Positions 15,160-22,572 of a DNA stretch of 64,000 nucleotides are shown here, in pieces (the stretch's first letter is position 1; each line of letters starts with the position of its first letter). A program made the translations under genes and the position numbers. The stretch spans positions 1,148,501 to 1,212,500 of the forward strand of contig NC_018485.1 of NCBI RefSeq assembly GCF_000304315.1, read 5' to 3'. The DNA comes from Methylocystis sp. SC2 (lineage in GTDB: Bacteria; Pseudomonadota; Alphaproteobacteria; Rhizobiales; Beijerinckiaceae). The notes below the pieces were generated by a model. That model was not told where the DNA came from. It was given only the letters and a program-made list of their open reading frames with translations, and did no database searches.

Positions 15160-15274
15160 GCCCTTCTCCCGCTCGCGGGAGAAGACGTCATGCGAAGCAT
15201 GACGGATGAGGGTCGCGTGGATCACCCTCACCCGACCTCGCTTTGCGGGGCCACCCTCTCCCAAAGGGAGGGGG
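15160..15274. repeat. Chain of palindromic repeat units upstream of and overlapping the pbpC start
   Basis: Successive short hairpins are visible: TCTCCCGCTCGCGGGAGA, GTCATGCGAAGCATGAC, a GATGAGGGT/ACCCTCA pair, and CCCTCTCCCAAAGGGAGGG. This composition (CCCTCACCCGACCTCGC, CTTTGCGGGGCC) is that of extragenic palindromic repeats common in Rhizobiales. The first possible pbpC start (15206) lies inside it. The AAAGGGAGGGGG end sits just before an in-frame TTG, so the element may supply the ribosome-binding site. Confidence 0.7.
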
Positions 15275-17605
15275 TTGGCGTGCGGAATCATTCTCGCTGT
15301 CGTTGCGGCGTTCATCGCCTGCGCCGCCTGGCTGTCGCATGAGGCGCTGTCGCGCGCCGAACTCAATTCTCCACGCGCCAGCGCCATCCTCTACGACCGC
15401 AACGGCGCCTTTCTCACGCAGATCGGCGAAAGGACCCGCGATCCGGCGACGAACGCGCCGCGCATCGATTATGGCTATTGGCCGCTGAAGACCGTCCCGC
15501 ACAAAATTGCCCGCGCGACGCTCGCTCTCGAAGATCGCCGCTTCTACGATCATGCTGGCGTCGACGTCCGCGCGCTGTTGCGCGCCGCCTGGCGCAACCT
15601 CGTTTCGCGCGGCAGACGCGAAGGCGCCTCGACCATCGCGATGCAGGTCGCGCGCATGCAGGGCGAGCGACCGCGCGCGTTCTTCGAGAAACTGATGCAG
15701 GCGGCGACGGCGATCGCCATCATCGCGCGTCACGGGCATGAAACGACGCTGGCGCATTATCTGCGGCTCGCGCCCTATGGCCTTAACGGCCATGGCGTCG
15801 CCTACGCCGCGCGATTTTATTTCGACAAGCCCGTCGACGACCTTTCCTGGGCGCAGGCGGCGCTTCTCGCCGCCATCCCGCAATCGCCCGGACGGATGAA
15901 CATTACGCGCGAGAGCGGATTGAAATTGGCGGCGGCGCGCGCGCGTTACGCCATCGCCCGGCTCGAAACGGAAGGCGCGCTCGACGCGGCGCAGGCGGCG
16001 CTCGCGCGCGCCGAGCTCGATCATATGCGGCCGCTCGACGCCAAGCGCCGTCCGGAAACATTGCATCTCGCGCTGCGCTACGAAGCGCTGGCCCGCGAGG
16101 GCCACGCGCGCCAGATCTCTGAAGACGATCCGCGCGTCAACGCCACGATCGACTTGAGCGTCGAGGGCGACGTTGCGCGTCTCGCGCGCCGCTATCTTTC
16201 GATGTTTCGCGTCCGCGGCGCGCGCCAAGTCGCCGTCATGGTCGTTGAGCGCGGAACCAACGCGGTCATCGCCGACGTCGGCTCCTCCGACTATTACGAC
16301 CCGCAGGCGGGGGCTTTCGATTTCACCCGCGTGCGGCGCTCTCCGGGCTCGACATTGAAGCCGTTCATTTATGCGCTGGCCTTCGAGCGCGGCGTTCTCA
16401 AGACGACGGATCTCTTGAACGACATTCCTGAAGGCGCCTCGGGCGTGTCGAACGCCGACGGGCTCTATCTTGGACCGCTGACGCCGCGTCAGGCGCTCGC
16501 CAATTCCCGCAACGTGCCGGCGACCAATCTGCTGCGGCGCGTGGGGCTCGAGGCGAATTTCAACTTCCTTCGCGACCTCGGCCTGCACGATCTCGAAACG
16601 CCGGCGGAGAGTTTCGGAATTTCCATGGCGATCGGCGCGCTGCCGACGCGGCTCGAGGACGTGATGCGCGCCTATGCCGCGCTCGCGGACGATGGGATCA
16701 TGCGCGAACTTGCCTTCACGCGCGACGAATCGCGACGTCCGGCGCGGCGCGTCTTGTCGGTCGACAGCGCGCGGCTGATCGCCTCGATGCTCGCCGATCC
16801 CCAGGCGCGGCTTCCGTCCTTTCCGCGCTACGGACCGCTCGAATATCCCTTCGCGGTCGCCGTGAAGACCGGCACGTCGCAAGCCTATCGCGACGCCTGG
16901 ACGATCGCCTTTTCGCATAAATTTATCGTCGGCGTATGGCTCGGGCGTGGCGACGCCGGCGCGATGCGCGCGATGACCGGCGTTTCATCGGCGGCGCGGC
17001 TCGCCCATGGCGTGCTGGCGAAGCTGCATGACGCGAAGCCCGGAGACATCGCGCCGGAAACATTTGCGCCGCCGCCGGGACGAATCGCCATCGATCTCTG
17101 TCGCGCTGGAGATGGCGCCGACTGCGCGCAGACAGTGCGCGAATGGGTGAAGCCGGAGGACGCCCGTTGGAGCCAGACGCAACATCCGCGTCCTCATCCT
17201 GAGGAGCCGCGAAGCGGCGTCTCGAAGGATGTTCCGGAAACGGCGCTCTGCGCGCCGCCGGCCTTCGAGGCACGCATTTCCGGCGCTCCGCAGGGGGAGA
17301 AAGCGGATCGCGCGTGCGACTCGCAAGCAATGAGCGTCGCGCCGCTCGTCATCGCGACGCCGGAACACAACACGCATATCTGGCGAAACCCGGAGCAGCC
17401 CGAGCGCTTCAACCGACTCGCGTTGAAACTCGCGCCCTCAGGCGCGGATGCGCAGATCGTCTGGACGATCGACGGCGAACCTTTCGCGACGGCGCAGGCG
17501 GACGAAACTGTGTTCTGGCCGATGACGCCCGGCCGACATCGCATTCAGGCGCGGCTGGCGCTCGCGCCTGTCGCGTCGCGCGCGGTGAGGGTTGTGATTG
17601 AGTGA
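15206..17605 (+). CDS. pbpC: Penicillin-binding protein 1C (bifunctional transglycosylase/transpeptidase)
   Basis: An inner-membrane enzyme with a periplasmic body. A membrane anchor (GIILAVVAAFIACAAWL) precedes a GT51 glycosyltransferase domain, with LEDRRFYDHAGVD and GASTIAMQVAR at ~residues 108-150. The transpeptidase domain has SxxK in PGSTLKPF (~S381), SxN in LANSRNVPATN, and KTG in AVKTGTSQAYRD (~553). The C-terminal ~90 residues match the BiPBP_C module typical of PbpC. The start is uncertain: the ATG at 15206 and the TTG at 15275 both fall in or next to a repeat cluster. A second repeat element is translated in frame between the transpeptidase and C-terminal modules. It pairs functionally with the upstream alpha-2-macroglobulin, probably for repair of breached cell wall (known association; role inferred). 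Confidence 0.93.
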   Translation: MRVAWITLTRPRFAGPPSPKGRGLACGIILAVVAAFIACAAWLSHEALSRAELNSPRASAILYDRNGAFLTQIGERTRDPATNAPRIDYGYWPLKTVPHKIARATLALEDRRFYDHAGVDVRALLRAAWRNLVSRGRREGASTIAMQVARMQGERPRAFFEKLMQAATAIAIIARHGHETTLAHYLRLAPYGLNGHGVAYAARFYFDKPVDDLSWAQAALLAAIPQSPGRMNITRESGLKLAAARARYAIARLETEGALDAAQAALARAELDHMRPLDAKRRPETLHLALRYEALAREGHARQISEDDPRVNATIDLSVEGDVARLARRYLSMFRVRGARQVAVMVVERGTNAVIADVGSSDYYDPQAGAFDFTRVRRSPGSTLKPFIYALAFERGVLKTTDLLNDIPEGASGVSNADGLYLGPLTPRQALANSRNVPATNLLRRVGLEANFNFLRDLGLHDLETPAESFGISMAIGALPTRLEDVMRAYAALADDGIMRELAFTRDESRRPARRVLSVDSARLIASMLADPQARLPSFPRYGPLEYPFAVAVKTGTSQAYRDAWTIAFSHKFIVGVWLGRGDAGAMRAMTGVSSAARLAHGVLAKLHDAKPGDIAPETFAPPPGRIAIDLCRAGDGADCAQTVREWVKPEDARWSQTQHPRPHPEEPRSGVSKDVPETALCAPPAFEARISGAPQGEKADRACDSQAMSVAPLVIATPEHNTHIWRNPEQPERFNRLALKLAPSGADAQIVWTIDGEPFATAQADETVFWPMTPGRHRIQARLALAPVASRAVRVVIE
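17190..17302. repeat. Palindromic repeat element inserted in frame within pbpC
   Basis: Begins CCTCATCCTGAGGAGCCGCG, with the inner hairpins CTCATCCTGAG and GCCGCGAAGCGGC, then GTCTCGAAGGATG. The far half has GGCCTTCGAGGCACGC and GGCGCTCCGCAGG, a degenerate mirror of the first half. This is the layout of an alphaproteobacterial extragenic palindromic element. It is read through as roughly 38 residues rich in Pro, Glu, Arg and Ser between two PbpC domains, with no stop codon. Confidence 0.65.
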
Positions 17606-17731
17606 CGCTTGGGCGTCCGTCGTCGAACGCAGCGCGGCGCCTGAAGCCTCATAGACAAGACTGACGGTCGCGGCCGTTCCCGTCGTTCCATCAGTGCGCG
17701 TGAAGATCGTCTGGCCGTCGATCGACGAGGA
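17604..17731 (-). pseudogene. GC-rich fragment of an RTX-type surface protein (C-side piece)
   Basis: Minus-strand translation gives an open stretch beginning SSSIDGQTIFTRTDGTTG and continuing TAATVSLVYEASGAAL, with no start codon. It begins directly after the TAA of the upstream AT-rich gene and runs into the antisense of the pbpC 3' end. The wording (DGQT-FTR-TDGTTG) is that of linker regions in large hemolysin-type calcium-binding proteins. It reads as the continuation of the fragment at 20263-20388, so I treat it as half of one interrupted domain. This is inference. Confidence 0.45.
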
Positions 17732-17732
17732 A

Positions 17733-18218
17733 TTAAGGTGAGGCGGTCATTAGAATCCGAAAGATCAAAATCAGAAGAACACTCGATATAGCTAAAGGCG
17801 TCCAGATATTCTCATAAGCGTCTACAAGCTGACAATTTAGTGCATTATTTTTGTCGCATGTCAATAAAACTTTGTCGCCTGATTTTATATGGAGGTGCCC
17901 CGCATTAACTTTCACAGTTATCTGCTCACATCCTTCCGAATACTGTACTAGCAACTCATACAAATAGTTGTTGTCGCTGTACAATTTTCCTTTACAGTTA
18001 AGCACAACTCCTTCACATTTTTTCCAATCACGTGACCGGAAATAGTAAGTAACAATTCTGTGCCAAGACCATACGAGGCCCACTGACGCAAAAATTAGGA
18101 AAGCAACTAGTTGCAGCTCATTGGACAATTTGGATACTCTTCTCATTCCGCTTTTTATCTGGCGAAGCCAGCGGAGAATTTTGCTGTCACTGGCCAGAGC
18201 GAGTCGGAACTCGCTCAA
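17733..18218 (-). CDS. Small two-TM membrane protein, DUF3592-like, immunity candidate
   Basis: 161 residues from a TTG at 18218, or ~137 from an ATG at 18146. Hydrophobic segment LQLVAFLIFASVGLVWSW is followed by an external domain with four cysteines (KKCEGVVLNCKG, SEGCEQ, LTCDKNNALNC) and a second segment PLAISSVLLILIFRIL. Two membrane helices around a small beta domain resemble DUF3592 proteins, which often occur as immunity proteins. Base composition is strongly AT-rich compared with the flanking pbpC and murA, indicating transfer. It is followed immediately by a GC-rich RTX-like fragment. Function not proven. Confidence 0.6.
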   Translation of the reverse strand: MSEFRLALASDSKILRWLRQIKSGMRRVSKLSNELQLVAFLIFASVGLVWSWHRIVTYYFRSRDWKKCEGVVLNCKGKLYSDNNYLYELLVQYSEGCEQITVKVNAGHLHIKSGDKVLLTCDKNNALNCQLVDAYENIWTPLAISSVLLILIFRILMTASP

Positions 18219-18264
18219 TGAACGGCCACCGAGTCTCGAGGCAGGACTTTCTCACTTGGATATG

Positions 18265-18706
18265 TCAGCCATCGTCATCCTCCAAATCAGCAGGAATTCC
18301 GGCGGAGCCATACAGCGTGGCCGGATCGCCGGCTTCGTATTCTCGAATTTTCGTTTCGAAGAACCTTGCCAAACTATTGCGCAGATGGCGCGTGTCTCGC
18401 CCGCCAACTACGTTTTGGTAATTCCAGCGTCCCGAACACGTCGTGATTTCGCTTAACATATGCGCTTGCGTCCACATCATGTGCAGCGGATCGCCAGGGA
18501 TGACGCGGCAGCTGCGCAAAGCCATCCGGCCAGGCCGGGTGGGCGAGGTGCGAACCGCATGCCTGCAAGCGCTCCCTATTCGCCAACTCGAAGAAAGGCG
18601 GGCGCACAGTATGCGCCGCGCTGAACCTGTAATATTGAGGCGCCTTCGGCTTTCGTCCGCGCATGCGCCGAGTCTGCGCTGCAATTTCAGTCGCCGCCTG
18701 CATCAT
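18265..18706 (-). pseudogene. Conserved-looking hypothetical gene broken by a frameshift
   Basis: Two overlapping minus-strand frames each hold half of a plausible protein. From ATGATG at 18706 one reads MMQAATEIAAQTRRMRGRK up to PDGFAQLPR. The continuation IPGDPLHMMWTQAHMLSEI to the stop at 18265 lies one frame away; the switch is near 18505. The start overlaps the stop of a short GC-rich fragment ending GNLPGKGGA by ATGA, as in a toxin-tail/immunity junction. I do not recognise the protein. No intact alternative is evident on the plus strand. Confidence 0.45.
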
Positions 18707-18773
18707 GCGCCGCCCTTGCCGGGCAGATTGCCGTCGCCGTAATCATTGCCCAAGGAGGAGCTCCCCCAAGCAC

Positions 18774-19220
18774 TTAGTTGACATTTAACCGAGGAACAAA
18801 TGCGCCATCGCGTATTTCACAAATAGTCTGATCGGACGGCATGTATAATATATATTTATACATATCAAGAAAGATATAGTATTCCATAGAATCCGCTATG
18901 ATTAGCAGCGCAGCGCTGTGATCGCCAAGATACACATCATGAAGGTTTTTGAACGCTGTTTTTAGTAGCGTATTCCAATATTTATCGATGACGTTCGTCA
19001 TAATTATTGAATTTATTAGTTTTCCAGAGCCGCCTGGAATGTAGCAGACCAGGTAACGATGGCCAGCTTTGAGCTTTAGTCCGGCCACATCCTCCTTACG
19101 GCTGACGTCGACTGTGTTAGGATACGCCATTAGAAGCTCTCCAATGTCGAATTCGAAAGCGTACAGCAAAACGCCTGCGACCAACACCATTGATACAAGA
19201 ATAGAGATCATCATTTTCAT
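18774..19220 (-). CDS. AT-rich single-TM hypothetical protein, immunity candidate
   Basis: 148 residues. An N-terminal membrane or signal segment (MMISILVSMVLVAGVLLYAF) precedes a ~120-residue domain with many Tyr and Ile residues (KYILYMPSDQTIC near the end). It begins 3 nt after the stop of a GC-rich fragment ending SRDAGGVGSES. Base composition is much lower in GC than the chromosome. It is intact, unlike its two upstream neighbours. A GC-rich piece followed at once by a small AT-rich gene suggests an immunity protein to a lost toxin tail. Not recognised by family. Confidence 0.55.
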   Translation of the reverse strand: MKMMISILVSMVLVAGVLLYAFEFDIGELLMAYPNTVDVSRKEDVAGLKLKAGHRYLVCYIPGGSGKLINSIIMTNVIDKYWNTLLKTAFKNLHDVYLGDHSAALLIIADSMEYYIFLDMYKYILYMPSDQTICEIRDGAFVPRLNVN

Positions 19221-19223
19221 GTT

Positions 19224-19304
19224 CTATGATTCCGATCCGACGCCGCCGGCGTCGCGGCTGAGCTTGATCGGCGGCTTCCGATCGCCGGCATACTGACCAG
19301 CATC
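19224..19304 (-). pseudogene. Short GC-rich coding remnant between AT-rich genes
   Basis: The minus strand reads PDDAGQYAGDRKPPIKLSRD and ends GGVGSES before a TAG at 19224-19226. The composition contrasts sharply with the AT-rich genes on both sides, and no start codon or upstream continuation in frame exists. It begins right after a CTCCTCCTCCT run at the end of the preceding gene. I interpret it as a displaced piece of a larger surface or toxin protein. Confidence 0.35.
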
Positions 19305-19305
19305 G

Positions 19306-19689
19306 TCAGGAGGAGGAGAATTTAGAAAGAGACGTAGCCAATAGTTCAAACTCCTCCTTATTTAGATAGTACCTGCACACTACATCACTTTCACTAATGG
19401 TCATGACACCGAAATAACCGTCTTGATTTCTACGGCATTCAATAGTGATTGAGTATTCTCCGTTCATAGAAAATTCACCTTTGCTATGGATTTTATCTCC
19501 TTCAAGAGTTCGCTATTCTCTCTTGGATCGGAGAAGATAGAGGACAGCCACCGTTTAAAGGAAAGAGCCACATCGATGCTCCAAGCTATTCGCCCAATCC
19601 ACACTTCATTGTCACAGGCCAACGAGCCTCTTAATCCCTCAGCAGCGAACGGGCGCGTCAGATCCAGCTTGTCTGAGTTTAACGCCCAT
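19306..19689 (-). pseudogene. AT-rich immunity-like gene interrupted by single-base frameshifts
   Basis: An ATG at 19689, preceded by GGAG, shifts frame within a few codons into WALNSDKLDLTRPFAAEGLR and on to LLKEIKSIAKVNFL. That frame stops in ATGA at 19464-19467. The next frame continues smoothly as KGEFSMNGEYSITIECRRN to CRYYLNKEEFELLATSLSKF and stops at 19306. Joined, these make one ~125-residue protein, with the second break at an A-run (GCAAAGG). The 53-codon ORF from 19467 could be expressed by coupling. Family not recognised. Confidence 0.5.
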
Positions 19690-19708
19690 GATTCTCACTC
19701 CAGCTCTC

Positions 19709-20194
19709 TTAATCTTGTAGCAGCAGCTTCATGGCCTGAGTAATGAACAATCTGGTCGAGGATTGCACGTCCCCATAGAGCAAGTAATAGCCAGCGATTT
19801 GTGATCATGGTCTAGGAACTCATAAACAAAATCTACTGTTATAACTTCATTGTAAGGGAACCTATTTTCTCGAGAGACATACCACATGCCTTTACTTCCT
19901 TTCTGGCGCCGCCTACTAACATAATCCTCCGACGCACTGACTTCAGGATAATTTTCGAGAAAAAATTTCACCTCAGGAGACTTTTTAACAAAGTCAATTC
20001 CATTTCATCTGACTGAACACGTTTATTATCGTCGCAAAAAAAGTTGTCTCTGGTATCCCGGTAGAACCCTACTGCAACTTCCACCGCTAGTAGCACGAAG
20101 AGAAGGATAAGCGGCAATGAAATGAGAGTAGCTCCAGCTAGAGCGACCGTCTTTCTTCTTTTATAGCTCGTTTTCTAAGGCTATCTAAATTCAA
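19709..20194 (-). pseudogene. AT-rich membrane-anchored immunity-like gene with several frameshifts
   Basis: Reading starts at a TTG (20194) overlapping the TGA of the upstream RTX-like ORF (NLDSLRKRAIKEER). After one shift it enters a membrane segment (LAGATLISLPLILLFVLLAV) followed by FYRDTRDNFFCDDNKRV. A missing base in an A-run near 19985 switches to SPEVKFFLENYPEVSASEDY, and a further shift near 19795 gives GYYLLYGDVQSSTRLFITQA up to the stop at 19709. The joined product is a ~160-residue N-anchored protein. Single-base losses in homopolymers could also be assembly error. Confidence 0.5.
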
Positions 20195-20490
20195 TTCGAT
20201 ACCCCAATTTGATTATTTTGCGATCGGCTCGACTCCTTATGCCGTTTTAGATGAGCTAGCGAATTGGCGATACCCGCCTGCGCCAGCGTCTGCGTCTGCA
20301 GCGTCTGCGTGCCGTCGGCGTTGGTGACGATCAGCTTGAACTGCGAGAAATTTGCGTCGCCGGCGCTGAGCTTGCCGTCGTGGGGACCCCTCCTCCCCAA
20401 CCAAGTAAATAATTGTATAAATACGAGCCCGTATCTAAGGAGTAGCTTGTAATAATATTCGCCATAGATGTCTCTCCGCTTGATTAACAA
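20191..20490 (-). CDS. Chimeric ORF: AT-rich N-terminus fused to an RTX-type fragment
   Basis: 99 residues in one frame but of two compositions. Residues 1-32 (MLIKRRDIYGEYYYKLLLRY...) are AT-rich and hydrophobic. From about 20388 the sequence becomes GC-rich and reads DGKLSAGDANFSQFKLIVTN and DGTQTLQTQTLAQAGI. This is the EF-hand-like calcium loop plus the L-A-Q-A-G-I motif found in large hemolysin-type proteins. From 20262 it becomes AT-rich again up to the stop. It is probably a remnant rather than a functional gene. The stop overlaps the next gene's TTG. Confidence 0.45.
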   Translation of the reverse strand: MLIKRRDIYGEYYYKLLLRYGLVFIQLFTWLGRRGPHDGKLSAGDANFSQFKLIVTNADGTQTLQTQTLAQAGIANSLAHLKRHKESSRSQNNQIGVSN

Positions 20491-20508: not shown

Positions 20509-21165
20509 TCAACTCGACGATTGCCCCGACCTATAAAAAATGGACCACAGCAAGTGAAAAAACCCAAATCCAACAGAAAAGCTAGCGCCGCACAATACAA
20601 ACATTGTTATAAACCACGTCTTTTTCACAAAAGCTGAATCAATTACACCAGATGGAGGGCTATACTGATAGACTAAGAACATCAAAATGTAAATTGATAG
20701 GCCAAAGCTAAGCGCTAAGGTAGTAAAATTCCAAAAATTGGGGGCAGACTTCCCCCGAATCTTCCCCCTCCGAATCAACAATGGAGGCATTGCCTTACCG
20801 AAGTATATAAATCCAACAATAACAGCGACTGAGTAGTATAAGAAAGCCCGCTCAAAGGAGCATACCTCCTGCGGAAACAGGAATTTATACTCGATGAACT
20901 TCTGAACCAAAGGCAGACCGGACAAGAGGCCATGTGGGCTGCGACATAAGTCAACTCTTGTTGATATTAGCGGAACAAGAAATGCAATAACCGCGGTGCC
21001 TGCCATGAAGCCTTCGAATACCTTTTCCTCAAGGGAAGTTGCCTCCCCTAGCAGTCCGTCTCCCTCGCCTTTCAATGCGCTGGGAGCGCGCCGTTCCTGA
21101 CCAGAATTTTTACACATAGTTCTGCCAGGCGTGAGGTTGCCGGGTTCAGTTGTCGAGAAGGGCAT
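20509..21165 (-). CDS. Four-TM hypothetical membrane protein
   Basis: About 218 residues from the ATG at 21165, which has GAGAGAAG upstream; the frame stays open to 21225. Hydrophobic segments are GTAVIAFLVPLIS, FLYYSVAVIVGFIYF, FTTLALSFGLSIYILMFLVY and WFITMFVLCGASFSVGFGFF. The N-terminal ~40 codons are GC-rich and the remainder AT-rich, as if a chromosomal 5' end were joined to foreign sequence. It follows murA on the same strand and starts the AT-rich island. Family unknown; it may belong to the toxin/immunity cassette set. Confidence 0.55.
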   Translation of the reverse strand: MPFSTTEPGNLTPGRTMCKNSGQERRAPSALKGEGDGLLGEATSLEEKVFEGFMAGTAVIAFLVPLISTRVDLCRSPHGLLSGLPLVQKFIEYKFLFPQEVCSFERAFLYYSVAVIVGFIYFGKAMPPLLIRRGKIRGKSAPNFWNFTTLALSFGLSIYILMFLVYQYSPPSGVIDSAFVKKTWFITMFVLCGASFSVGFGFFHLLWSIFYRSGQSSS

Positions 21166-21273
21166 GTCTTCTCTCGCGCGTGATTTACGCTTCACGGTCG
21201 CCATCGGCGACCGAGGCCAGTTCATTCACGCCGATGCGAGGAATGGGAAATCGTCGATAAACGACCTCCGCCC

Positions 21274-22572
21274 TCACCCCGCGGCGGTAATGCGCTCGAT
21301 TTCCGCGCCGCAGCCCGAAAGCTTCTTCTCCAGCCGCTCGAAGCCGCGATCGAGATGATAGACGCGGTTGATCGTCGTCTCGCCGCGCGCGGCGAGCGCC
21401 GCGATGACGAGCGAGACGGAGGCGCGCAGATCTGTCGCCATGACCGGCGCGCCATCGAGGTGATCGGCTCCCGTCACGATCGCCGTATCCCCTTCAAGCT
21501 TGATTTGAGCGCCGAGGCGCGCGAGCTCCTGCACATGCATGAAGCGGTTCTCGAAAATCGTCTCGGTGATGCGCGAAACGCCCTTGGCGCGCGTCATCAG
21601 CGCCATGAACTGCGCCTGCAGATCGGTCGGGAAGGCGGGGAACGGCGCCGTCGTGACGTCGACCGGCGAAATGCCCGCGCCGTTACGCGTCACCCGCAGT
21701 CCTTCATTCGTCTCGGTGACGCTGGCGCCGGCCTGCACGAGGGCGTCGAGCCCCGCCTGCAGAAGATCGGCGCGCGCGCCGGCGAGCAGAACGTCGCCGC
21801 CCGTCATCGCCACCGCCATGGCGTAGGTGCCGGCCTCGATGCGATCGGGCATGACGGCATGCCGCGCGCCGTATAGCGAACCGACGCCCTCGATCTCGAT
21901 CGTCGATTGCCCCGCGCCCTTGATGCGCGCGCCCATTTTCACGAGGCAGTCGGCAAGATCGACGACTTCCGGCTCGCGCGCGGCGTTGCGCAGCACGGTG
22001 GTTCCGCGCGCGAGCGACGCCGCCATCAGCGCCGTATGCGTGCCGCCCACCGTGACCTTGGGGAATTCGATCTCGGCGCCGACAAGGCCGTTCTTCGCCG
22101 TCGCGACGACATAGCCATTCTCGATGTCTATCTTCGCGCCGAGCTTTTCCAGCGCCATAAGCAGCAGATCGACGGGGCGCGTGCCAATCGCGCAGCCGCC
22201 CGGCAGCGACACGCGCGCCTCGCCGCAACGCGCGACGAGCGGCGCGAGCACCCAGAAGCTGGCGCGCATGCGCGAGACGAGATCATAGGGCGCGGTGGTG
22301 TCGACGATTTCACGCGCGGTGAGATGAACGGTGCGGCCGGCGTCGACGGACTCGCCGGTGCGCTTGCCGGCAATGGCGTAATCCACGCCATGATTGCCGA
22401 GGATGCGCTCGAGAAGCATCACGTCCGCGAGGAGCGGCATATTGGCGAGCGTCACGGTTTCGCGCGTCAGGAGCGATGCGATCATCAACGGCAAGGCGGC
22501 GTTCTTGGCGCCGGAAATCGGGATCACGCCATTGAGCCTGGTCCCGCCGACGATCTTGATCTTATCCATCAC
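21274..22572 (-). CDS. murA: UDP-N-acetylglucosamine 1-carboxyvinyltransferase
   Basis: MurA transfers enolpyruvate from PEP to UDP-GlcNAc, the first committed step of peptidoglycan synthesis, and is the fosfomycin target. The 432-residue length is normal. It shows the [20 protein letters not shown] start (K23 equals E. coli K22) and the active-site cysteine C127 in [13 protein letters not shown]. Being Cys rather than Asp, it predicts fosfomycin sensitivity at the enzyme level. Its ATG overlaps the TGA of the small upstream gene. Confidence 0.97.

What the first reader, a model, noticed from the sequence alone, without database searches (positions are those of the whole stretch)
17604..20490. 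One RTX-type domain appears split by a 2.5-kb AT-rich cassette block
A GC-rich fragment at 20263-20388 reads DGKLSAGDANFSQF...TLAQAGI. A second at 17604-17731 begins SSSIDGQTIFTRTDGTTG. Both lie on the minus strand and in the right order to be the two halves of one calcium-binding hemolysin-type segment. Between them lies AT-rich DNA holding four small immunity-like genes, each beginning at or next to a GC-rich coding remnant. This looks like toxin-tail/immunity cassettes inserted into, or left behind by, a polymorphic surface toxin whose main gene is gone. I recall the two sequence styles as neighbours in large RTX proteins, but could not align them.
Basis: partly seen in the sequence, partly recalled or inferred. 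Interest (0 to 1): 0.7.

Follow-up and report, generated by a model that had tools for sequence, protein, structure and literature searches.

The report
Orphan antitoxin island from toxin arrays
Between two housekeeping genes of a methane-eating bacterium lies a strip of small antidote-like genes stitched together by scraps of a large secreted toxin whose changeable end is its front rather than its tail, apparently the worn-down remains of several toxin-antidote units whose intact form still exists elsewhere in the same genome.

Summary
Both GC-rich fragments match one intact 2598-aa gene elsewhere in the same genome, in order and 47 bp apart, within a domain homologous to the FrpC self-processing module (SPM; E 1.9e-15). 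The main gene is not gone: it sits 1.4 Mb away beside type I secretion genes. The variable part is the head, not the tail: among 15 heads one pair is alike, and one head/upstream pair is AHH nuclease/Imm11. The block is not one gene split once: DUF4261 and core scraps occur out of order, so at least two cassettes decayed here. Small AT-rich genes stay open, several under purifying selection. The murA-pbpC gap is a recurrent site: of 17 genus genomes (own included) with the genes adjacent, 7 carry such pieces and 4 are nearly empty. Best reading: an orphan-immunity island left by tandem, N-terminally variable, type I-secreted toxin cassettes, probably exchanged between Methylocystis species. 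Toxicity and protection are inferred, not shown. New variant of a known kind.

The parts
21274..22572 (-). murA, left flank of the island
   Evidence: ORF (name recalled from sequence); matched in 36 of 39 genus genomes at E 1e-60
15206..17605 (+). pbpC-like penicillin-binding protein, right flank (convergent)
   Evidence: ORF (name recalled from sequence, no family search); matched in 31 of 39 genus genomes, on the same contig within 4.2 kb of murA in 17 of 39
21145..21245 (-). scrap 1: cassette leader plus about the first 9 codons of the DUF4261 gene
   Evidence: 77-85% to leaders in G000, G156, G181 main loci and the G168 gap
20509..21225 (-). imm-a, membrane-protein-like ORF; conserved part starts at 21117 (202 aa)
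   Evidence: 45-49% to a gene in the toxin array of G181; dN/dS 0.27 with saturated dS
20384..20465 (-). start of a toxin head, cut after about 26 codons and running out of frame into SPM piece 1
   Evidence: ORF w20331-20465; resembles, by eye only, the truncated head after the imm-a homologue in G181
20266..20383 (-). SPM piece 1 (core residues 542-579)
   Evidence: 89% DNA to intact core, E 1.5e-37
19729..20117 (-). AT-rich stretch, two ORFs of 49 and 80 aa, perhaps a decayed immunity gene
   Evidence: ORFs only; no homologue in the loci compared
19306..19639 (-). imm-c, one 98-aa ORF in G181, frame-disrupted here (52 + 53 aa)
   Evidence: 91% DNA to G181 murA-pbpC gap; 42% over 45 aa to a gene in the G181 toxin array
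19232..19270 (-). scrap 2 of DUF4261 (codons about 166-178)
   Evidence: 87-90% to G168 gap, G156 and G181 main loci
18774..19220 (-). imm-d, 148 aa
   Evidence: 94% aa to G156 in the same gap; 2 of 298 family genomes, own included
18707..18766 (-). core linker scrap (residues about 300-317) running into the DUF4261 tail (codons about 258-262)
   Evidence: 87-91% to G000 main locus, G156 and G181; tail match to G168 gap
18491..18706 (-). 5' third of an Imm11 gene (first 72 of 229 codons)
   Evidence: 91% DNA to intact Imm11 gene in G168 gap; G156 copy is Pfam Imm11
18192..18237 (-). scrap 3 of DUF4261 (codons about 129-143)
   Evidence: 87-91% to G168 gap, G156 gap and main locus, G181 main locus
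17733..18218 (-). imm-f, 161 aa (compared from 18128, 131 aa)
   Evidence: 85% aa to G156, dN/dS 0.31, p 0.0003; remote homologues (24-27%) beside Imm11 in G164 and G169
17613..17729 (-). SPM piece 2 (core residues 593-635), ends by the pbpC stop
   Evidence: 85% DNA to intact core, E 2.5e-30

Best explanation
The murA-pbpC gap holds the decayed remains of several tandem cassettes, each once made of a DUF4261 gene, an immunity gene, a toxin head and part of the SPM core of a type I-secreted polymorphic toxin. Deletions removed the heads and most of DUF4261 and core, while most immunity genes stayed open. The result is an orphan-immunity island. Intact arrays work as follows (inferred): the T1SS exports a large protein whose N-terminal head is the toxin, the gene upstream of the head protects the producer, and new cassettes join at the SPM. 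Copies that lose their toxin protect against neighbours that still carry it. Shown here: homology, order, scars, rarity, recurrence of the site, constraint on several genes. Inferred: toxicity, protection, the mechanism of cassette exchange.
For: Intact gene followed by a C39-domain ABC transporter, HlyD (Pfam) and a TolC-like gene (recalled) in the same genome. AHH nuclease head (E 2e-7) preceded by Imm11 (E 1e-41) in G156. Head of own cassette 1 matches the Smlt3024 antibacterial effector model over residues 2-116 (E 9.7e-9, 34 bits, far below that model's full-length cut-off of 800). LprI family gene before the own intact head (E 2e-9). Of 15 heads compared, 1 pair similar. imm-a and imm-c homologues lie in the G181 array among SPM ends and a truncated head. 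imm-f homologues lie beside Imm11 in G164 (there also an imm1 homologue, 77%) and G169, at a site whose flanking genes are, by eye, those of the own third site. Purifying selection: imm-f p 0.0003, imm-c halves p 0.016 and 0.0017, imm-a p 4e-12. Cassette pieces in the gap in 7 of 17 genomes, 72-139 bp in 4, scattered on the tree. Carriers G164 and G168 gave no SPM core match at E 1e-5 anywhere, and G169 only the one in the gap, so there the small genes lack a toxin of this kind. Block w19269-17617 is 92% identical to G156 including relic stretches at 95-98%, while flanking synonymous distance is 0.19-0.34, which suggests exchange between species.
Against: No small gene in the window matches a known immunity family (Pfam; PADLOC, six of them). 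imm-d has no homologue outside G156 in 298 family genomes, and its dN/dS of 0.57 is not different from 1 (p 0.23). imm-c is frame-disrupted. Of 16 SPM loci looked at, 3 (G151, G079b, G091) have no gene ending within 80 bp before the head, and in a fourth (G014) that gene is GC-rich and not immunity-like. Sigma-70-type promoter and terminator matches are at chance level. imm-a homologues in G157 and G193 stand alone without toxin pieces. No activity was tested; structure prediction could not be run.
Confidence: 0.75

Rival explanations
1. One SPM toxin gene once stood between murA and pbpC and was split by an inserted block of AT-rich immunity genes.
For: The two SPM pieces are in order and 47 bp apart in the intact gene; uniform random placement of two such pieces gives this with frequency 0.006.
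Against: The interval also holds core and DUF4261 scraps out of order, so a second copy is needed. G156 and G164 have the right piece with nearly the same left edge but no left piece in that order. Breaks at this part of the core recur elsewhere, so adjacency may be a breakpoint effect. Fragment 1 follows a truncated head out of frame (by eye). None of the 17 gaps is long enough for the intact gene.
Confidence: 0.12
2. Neutral debris: gene fragments accumulating at a permissive spot between convergent genes, with no retained function.
For: Most toxin parts are broken; imm-c has a frame disruption; the stretch w19729-20117 looks degenerate; imm-d shows no selection signal; six of 17 gaps hold unrelated or unidentified DNA.
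Against: dN/dS well below 1 for imm-f and both halves of imm-c. Heads are cut while a small gene stays open here and, by eye, in G181 and G169. A second site keeps immunity-like genes in three genomes.
Confidence: 0.13
3. Ordinary chromosomal genes or remains of a phage or transposon.
Against: Homologues are very rare (2-4 of 298 family genomes, own included). No phage, integrase or transposase was recognised in the gap on reading the ORFs of 40 aa or more, and the six gap ORFs plus imm-a scanned gave no Pfam family at E 0.1.
Confidence: 0.03

Closest known systems
FrpC/FrpD of Neisseria meningitidis (T1SS protein with self-processing module; passages seen in PMC7078468, abstract start in a listing for PMC5233953)
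   Same: SPM by sequence (E 1.9e-15); T1SS genes next to it; N-terminal part of FrpC is bound by a separately encoded protein
   Different: The residue before the conserved Pro was read in 10 of 16 proteins and is F (4), V (2), S (2), G or E, never Asp, so FrpC-type clip-and-link is not expected; heads vary freely
Smlt3024/Smlt3025 of Stenotrophomonas maltophilia (passages seen in PMC6759196)
   Same: Head of own cassette 1 matches the start of the Smlt3024 model (E 9.7e-9); the paper notes homology of Smlt3024 to N-termini of RTX proteins
   Different: Delivered by a type IV system there, carried on a T1SS-linked protein here
Polymorphic toxins with orphan cassettes (CdiA, Rhs; passages seen in PMC3482391, Cdi/Rhs details recalled)
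   Same: Conserved carrier, exchangeable toxin, adjacent immunity gene, tandem displaced cassettes, AHH and Imm11 domains
   Different: Recognised toxin domain at the N-terminus with the immunity gene upstream; carrier is a T1SS SPM protein; the 2012 abstract characterises the systems by C-terminal toxin domains
Orphan-immunity arrays: AID/rAID of Bacteroidales (passages seen in PMC12247911)
   Same: Arrays of short co-oriented immunity genes without toxins
   Different: Those counter T6SS effectors and rAID carries a recombinase; here the arrays retain scars of a T1SS toxin and no recombinase was recognised

Membership tests
Polymorphic toxin system | Conserved carrier with highly variable toxin domain | tested here: met
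   15 heads, one similar pair (G154/G181), all before an SPM-like core. Recognised toxin-type families in two heads only: AHH and Smlt3024-like
Polymorphic toxin system | Immunity gene next to the toxin domain | tested here: met
   13 of 16 loci have a gene ending -8 to +77 bp from the head start; one of the 13 (G014) does not look immunity-like; 3 of 16 have none. Imm11 by Pfam in G156
Polymorphic toxin system | Toxin domain at the C-terminus | tested here: not met
   The two recognised toxin-type domains are N-terminal. C-terminal parts of the other proteins were not compared
Polymorphic toxin system | Toxic activity neutralised by the immunity protein | not testable with these tools
   No experiment
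FrpC-type self-processing RTX protein | SPM homology | tested here: met
   6sjw_A, E 1.9e-15, residues 36-198 of the 240-aa query
FrpC-type self-processing RTX protein | Scissile Asp-Pro | tested here: not met
   F-P in four Methylocystis proteins, G-P, E-P, V-P (two), S-P (G091), S-P in G099 read: 10 of 16 read, no Asp. In one search two proteins (G079a, G079b) matched elsewhere, G099 too, and four gave nothing
FrpC-type self-processing RTX protein | RTX nonapeptide repeats | tested here: not met
   Pfam scan of the 2598-aa protein at E 0.1 gave DUF4214 and a weak EF-hand only
AID/rAID orphan-immunity array | Co-oriented short immunity genes without cognate toxin | tested here: inconclusive
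   Co-oriented and toxin-less; immunity function inferred
rAID orphan-immunity array | Associated tyrosine recombinase | tested here: not met
   None recognised in the gap on reading ORFs or among the ORFs scanned; no dedicated search

The most novel reading that the evidence does not exclude
Methylocystis and relatives carry an inverted class of polymorphic toxin: T1SS-exported SPM proteins whose exchangeable toxin is the N-terminal head, swapped through a join in the SPM, with tandem displaced cassettes. Toxin-free immunity genes are kept at fixed sites (murA-pbpC and one other) and pass between species there, acting as a heritable, shareable record of past toxins.
Probability: 0.5. Interest if true: 0.75.

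Novelty: new variant of a known kind. Interest (0 to 1): 0.55.

Why it matters
Polymorphic toxins are usually described with C-terminal toxins. A T1SS class with interchangeable N-terminal toxins would explain many variable starts of large secreted proteins in Alphaproteobacteria. The island records repeated toxin loss with immunity-like genes retained, so the idea of orphan immunity as defence becomes testable outside the gut and outside T6SS. Among the listings of nine searches I saw nothing on such a system in methanotrophs or on N-terminal T1SS polymorphic toxins as a class, apart from the Smlt3024-RTX remark in PMC6759196. The listings were capped and most subscription journals are not held.

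Tried and rejected
Single split gene: rejected as the whole story because of out-of-order scraps. Toxin tails: rejected, the variable part is the head. Main gene lost: rejected. Lysozyme-like own intact head: suggested by the LprI gene upstream but without Pfam or PDB sequence support, so only a guess. PoNe-like nuclease in G181/G154, PIN-like head in G134 and HExxH heads in G142/G076: motifs read by eye from recall; the scans made gave no support (G181; G134, G076; G142 and G154 not scanned). Own imm1 hit BP39L lectin in the PDB (E 1e-4); not pursued. PADLOC: nothing for six window ORFs. Promoters and terminators: chance level. Six gaps of 0.4-1.4 kb (G172, G171, G157, G173, G135, G151) hold other DNA that I did not identify.

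Dropped rows: one search left out self-matches, L010 queries beyond 15500 and L009 in its second table; one search printed plus-strand ORFs only and left out the own gap; one search cut core hits weaker than 1e-4; one search used 19 of 39 genus genomes; one search looked at 10 of the non-genus SPM places; the head comparison used 15 of 16 proteins (G091 dropped, too little before the SPM) with head ends cut by me; the upstream-gene table used 13 of 16 loci (G151, G079b, G091 have no gene ending close by).
Full report
Setting. The window is C1:1148501-1212500 of a one-contig 3.77-Mb genome. Its genus is Methylocystis by inference: the SPM match of same-genus genome G181 (contig 239, about 5.9-7.0 kb) is the place found in contig 239 of M. 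suflitae NLS-7. The block lies between murA (minus) and a pbpC-like gene (plus).

The two fragments. A search of the own genome with the block finds fragment 1 (w20383-20266) at C1:2580532-2580643 and fragment 2 (w17729-17613) at C1:2580691-2580806, same order, 47 bp apart, inside an intact ORF of 2598 aa. The region matches the self-processing module of FrpC (6sjw_A, E 1.9e-15). The finding is therefore correct as stated: two neighbouring parts of one domain.

The intact system. The 2598-aa gene is followed by an ABC transporter with a C39 match, an HlyD and a TolC-like gene (TolC by recall). Upstream lie a truncated sibling (565 aa, different head, same core) and repeated leaders. The heads of the two siblings show no similarity at E 0.01, while 843 bp of their cores are 88% identical. 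In G156 the order is DUF4261, Imm11 (E 1e-41), then a 2553-aa protein with an AHH nuclease head (E 2e-7). In G181 it is two decayed cassettes, DUF4261, a 239-aa gene without Pfam match and a 2603-aa protein. Across 15 heads from 13 genomes only G154 and G181 are alike. Of 16 loci, 13 have a gene ending -8 to +77 bp from the head start; one of these (G014) is GC-rich and not immunity-like; G151, G079b and G091 have none. The own heads and the window's small genes have GC3 0.43-0.54; the core has 0.88. This explains the alternation of AT-rich and GC-rich DNA: here the variable modules are AT-rich, the conserved ones GC-rich. SPM core matches occur in 7 of 39 genus genomes and 19 of 149 family genomes, both counts with the own genome, so the system is patchy.

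What is in the window. Reading the minus strand: DUF4261 leader scrap, imm-a, cut head start, SPM piece 1, AT-rich relic, imm-c (frame-disrupted), DUF4261 scrap, imm-d, linker scrap running into a DUF4261 tail, first third of Imm11, relic, DUF4261 scrap, imm-f, SPM piece 2, pbpC. DUF4261 codons run about 1-9, 166-178, 258-262, 129-143 and core residues 542-579, 300-317, 593-635 (positions worked out). Both are out of order, so at least two cassettes stood here; five or six is my guess from the number of immunity-like genes.

Relatives. murA and pbpC are on one contig within 4.2 kb in 17 of 39 genus genomes; some others are split over draft contigs or lack a match. Of the 17, 7 hold cassette pieces (G000, G156, G164, G168, G169, G174, G181), 4 have 72-139 bp (G177, G176, G175, G155), and 6 have 0.4-1.4 kb of other DNA. 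States are scattered on a murA+pbpC tree, some of whose nodes are weakly supported. G168 has an open DUF4261 and Imm11 pair without a head. G164 and G168 gave no SPM core match at E 1e-5 in the whole genome, G169 and G174 (59% complete) only the piece in the gap: their small genes have no intact toxin of this kind. No gap is long enough for the intact toxin gene. w19269-17617 is colinear with G156 at 92%, with 100-bp windows from 74 to 99% and relic stretches at 95-98%, while flanking dS is 0.19 (murA) and 0.34 (pbpC) and imm-d dS is 0.05 against 0.28 for imm-f. This fits exchange between species after they split, at least for part of the block; counts are small.

Breakpoints. Array copies of the core end at the NADG codons (NADS or NAEG in G181) and run into the leader (own cassette 1 and two in G181). 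SPM piece 2 starts within a base or two of the same place in G000, G156 and G164, at a 12-bp palindrome (by eye), although G164 has a different gene to its left; G169 starts about 20 bp earlier, right after murA. So the SPM middle is a recurring join. Whether this is a specific process, micro-homology or shared descent is not settled.

Selection. dN/dS (Nei-Gojobori, own script; Fisher test on rounded counts): imm-f 0.31 (p 0.0003), imm-c halves 0.34 and 0.15 (p 0.016, 0.0017), imm-a against G181 0.27 (p 4e-12, dS 1.78, saturated), imm-d 0.57 (p 0.23, not significant); intact core 0.07.

Distribution. Own genome included, imm-a is found in 4 of 298 family genomes, imm-f in 4, imm-d in 2. The imm-f homologues of G164 and G169 (24-27%) lie at a second site whose flanking genes are, by eye, those of the own third site at C1:1.536-1.540 Mb. 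In G164 it holds Imm11 (in two frames), an imm-f homologue, a 145-aa gene, an imm1 homologue (77%) and an imm-a-like gene (32% over 77 aa), with no SPM found in 10 kb; in G169 Imm11 pieces and an imm-f homologue, with a stretch of unknown bases between. The own third site holds an imm1 homologue and an Imm11 scrap. imm-a homologues in G157 and G193 stand alone between other genes; for G157 one search counts one stop inside the match, though one search lists an open 196-aa ORF there.

Mechanism. Shown: homology, order, scars, constraint on several genes, recurrence. From known families: AHH nucleases and Imm11 as toxin and immunity (recalled and Pfam names), Smlt3024 as antibacterial (PMC6759196, passages seen), T1SS export. 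Inferred only: that heads kill neighbours, that window genes protect, how cassettes move. FrpC-type clip-and-link is unlikely, as the scissile Asp is absent in the 10 of 16 proteins where the site was read.

Verdict. Observation confirmed, interpretation partly supported, new variant of a known kind.

Noticed in passing
L012:5046-8322 (C1:1.536-1.539 Mb): A second immunity-like island with imm1 and Imm11 pieces and three copies of a 77-110-bp repeat made of the imm1 end and head start; the same flanks carry immunity-like genes in G164 and G169.
   Followed up: partly
17190-17231: Sequence resembling a dispersed palindromic repeat (recalled) lies inside the pbpC coding region; one match to its 16-base half in the window. 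pbpC matches of several relatives stop near residue 652-668.
   Followed up: no
17874-17973: Within imm-f a 100-bp patch is only 74% identical to G156 while neighbouring windows are 92-93%: local recombination or diversifying change.
   Followed up: no
L163:4836-5426 (minus, G157:C11) and L164:4220-4723 (G193:C1): Single AT-rich imm-a homologues between other genes, without SPM, DUF4261 or Imm11 matches in the 9-12 kb read.
   Followed up: partly
L147:6993-7741 (G134): Two tandem genes (143 and 132 aa by ORF listing), alike by eye, directly before an SPM protein with a new head.
   Followed up: no
L010:11696-12865: LprI (lysozyme inhibitor) family gene with a sub-threshold DUF3298 match directly before the own intact head: suggests, no more, a peptidoglycan-directed head.
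   Followed up: partly
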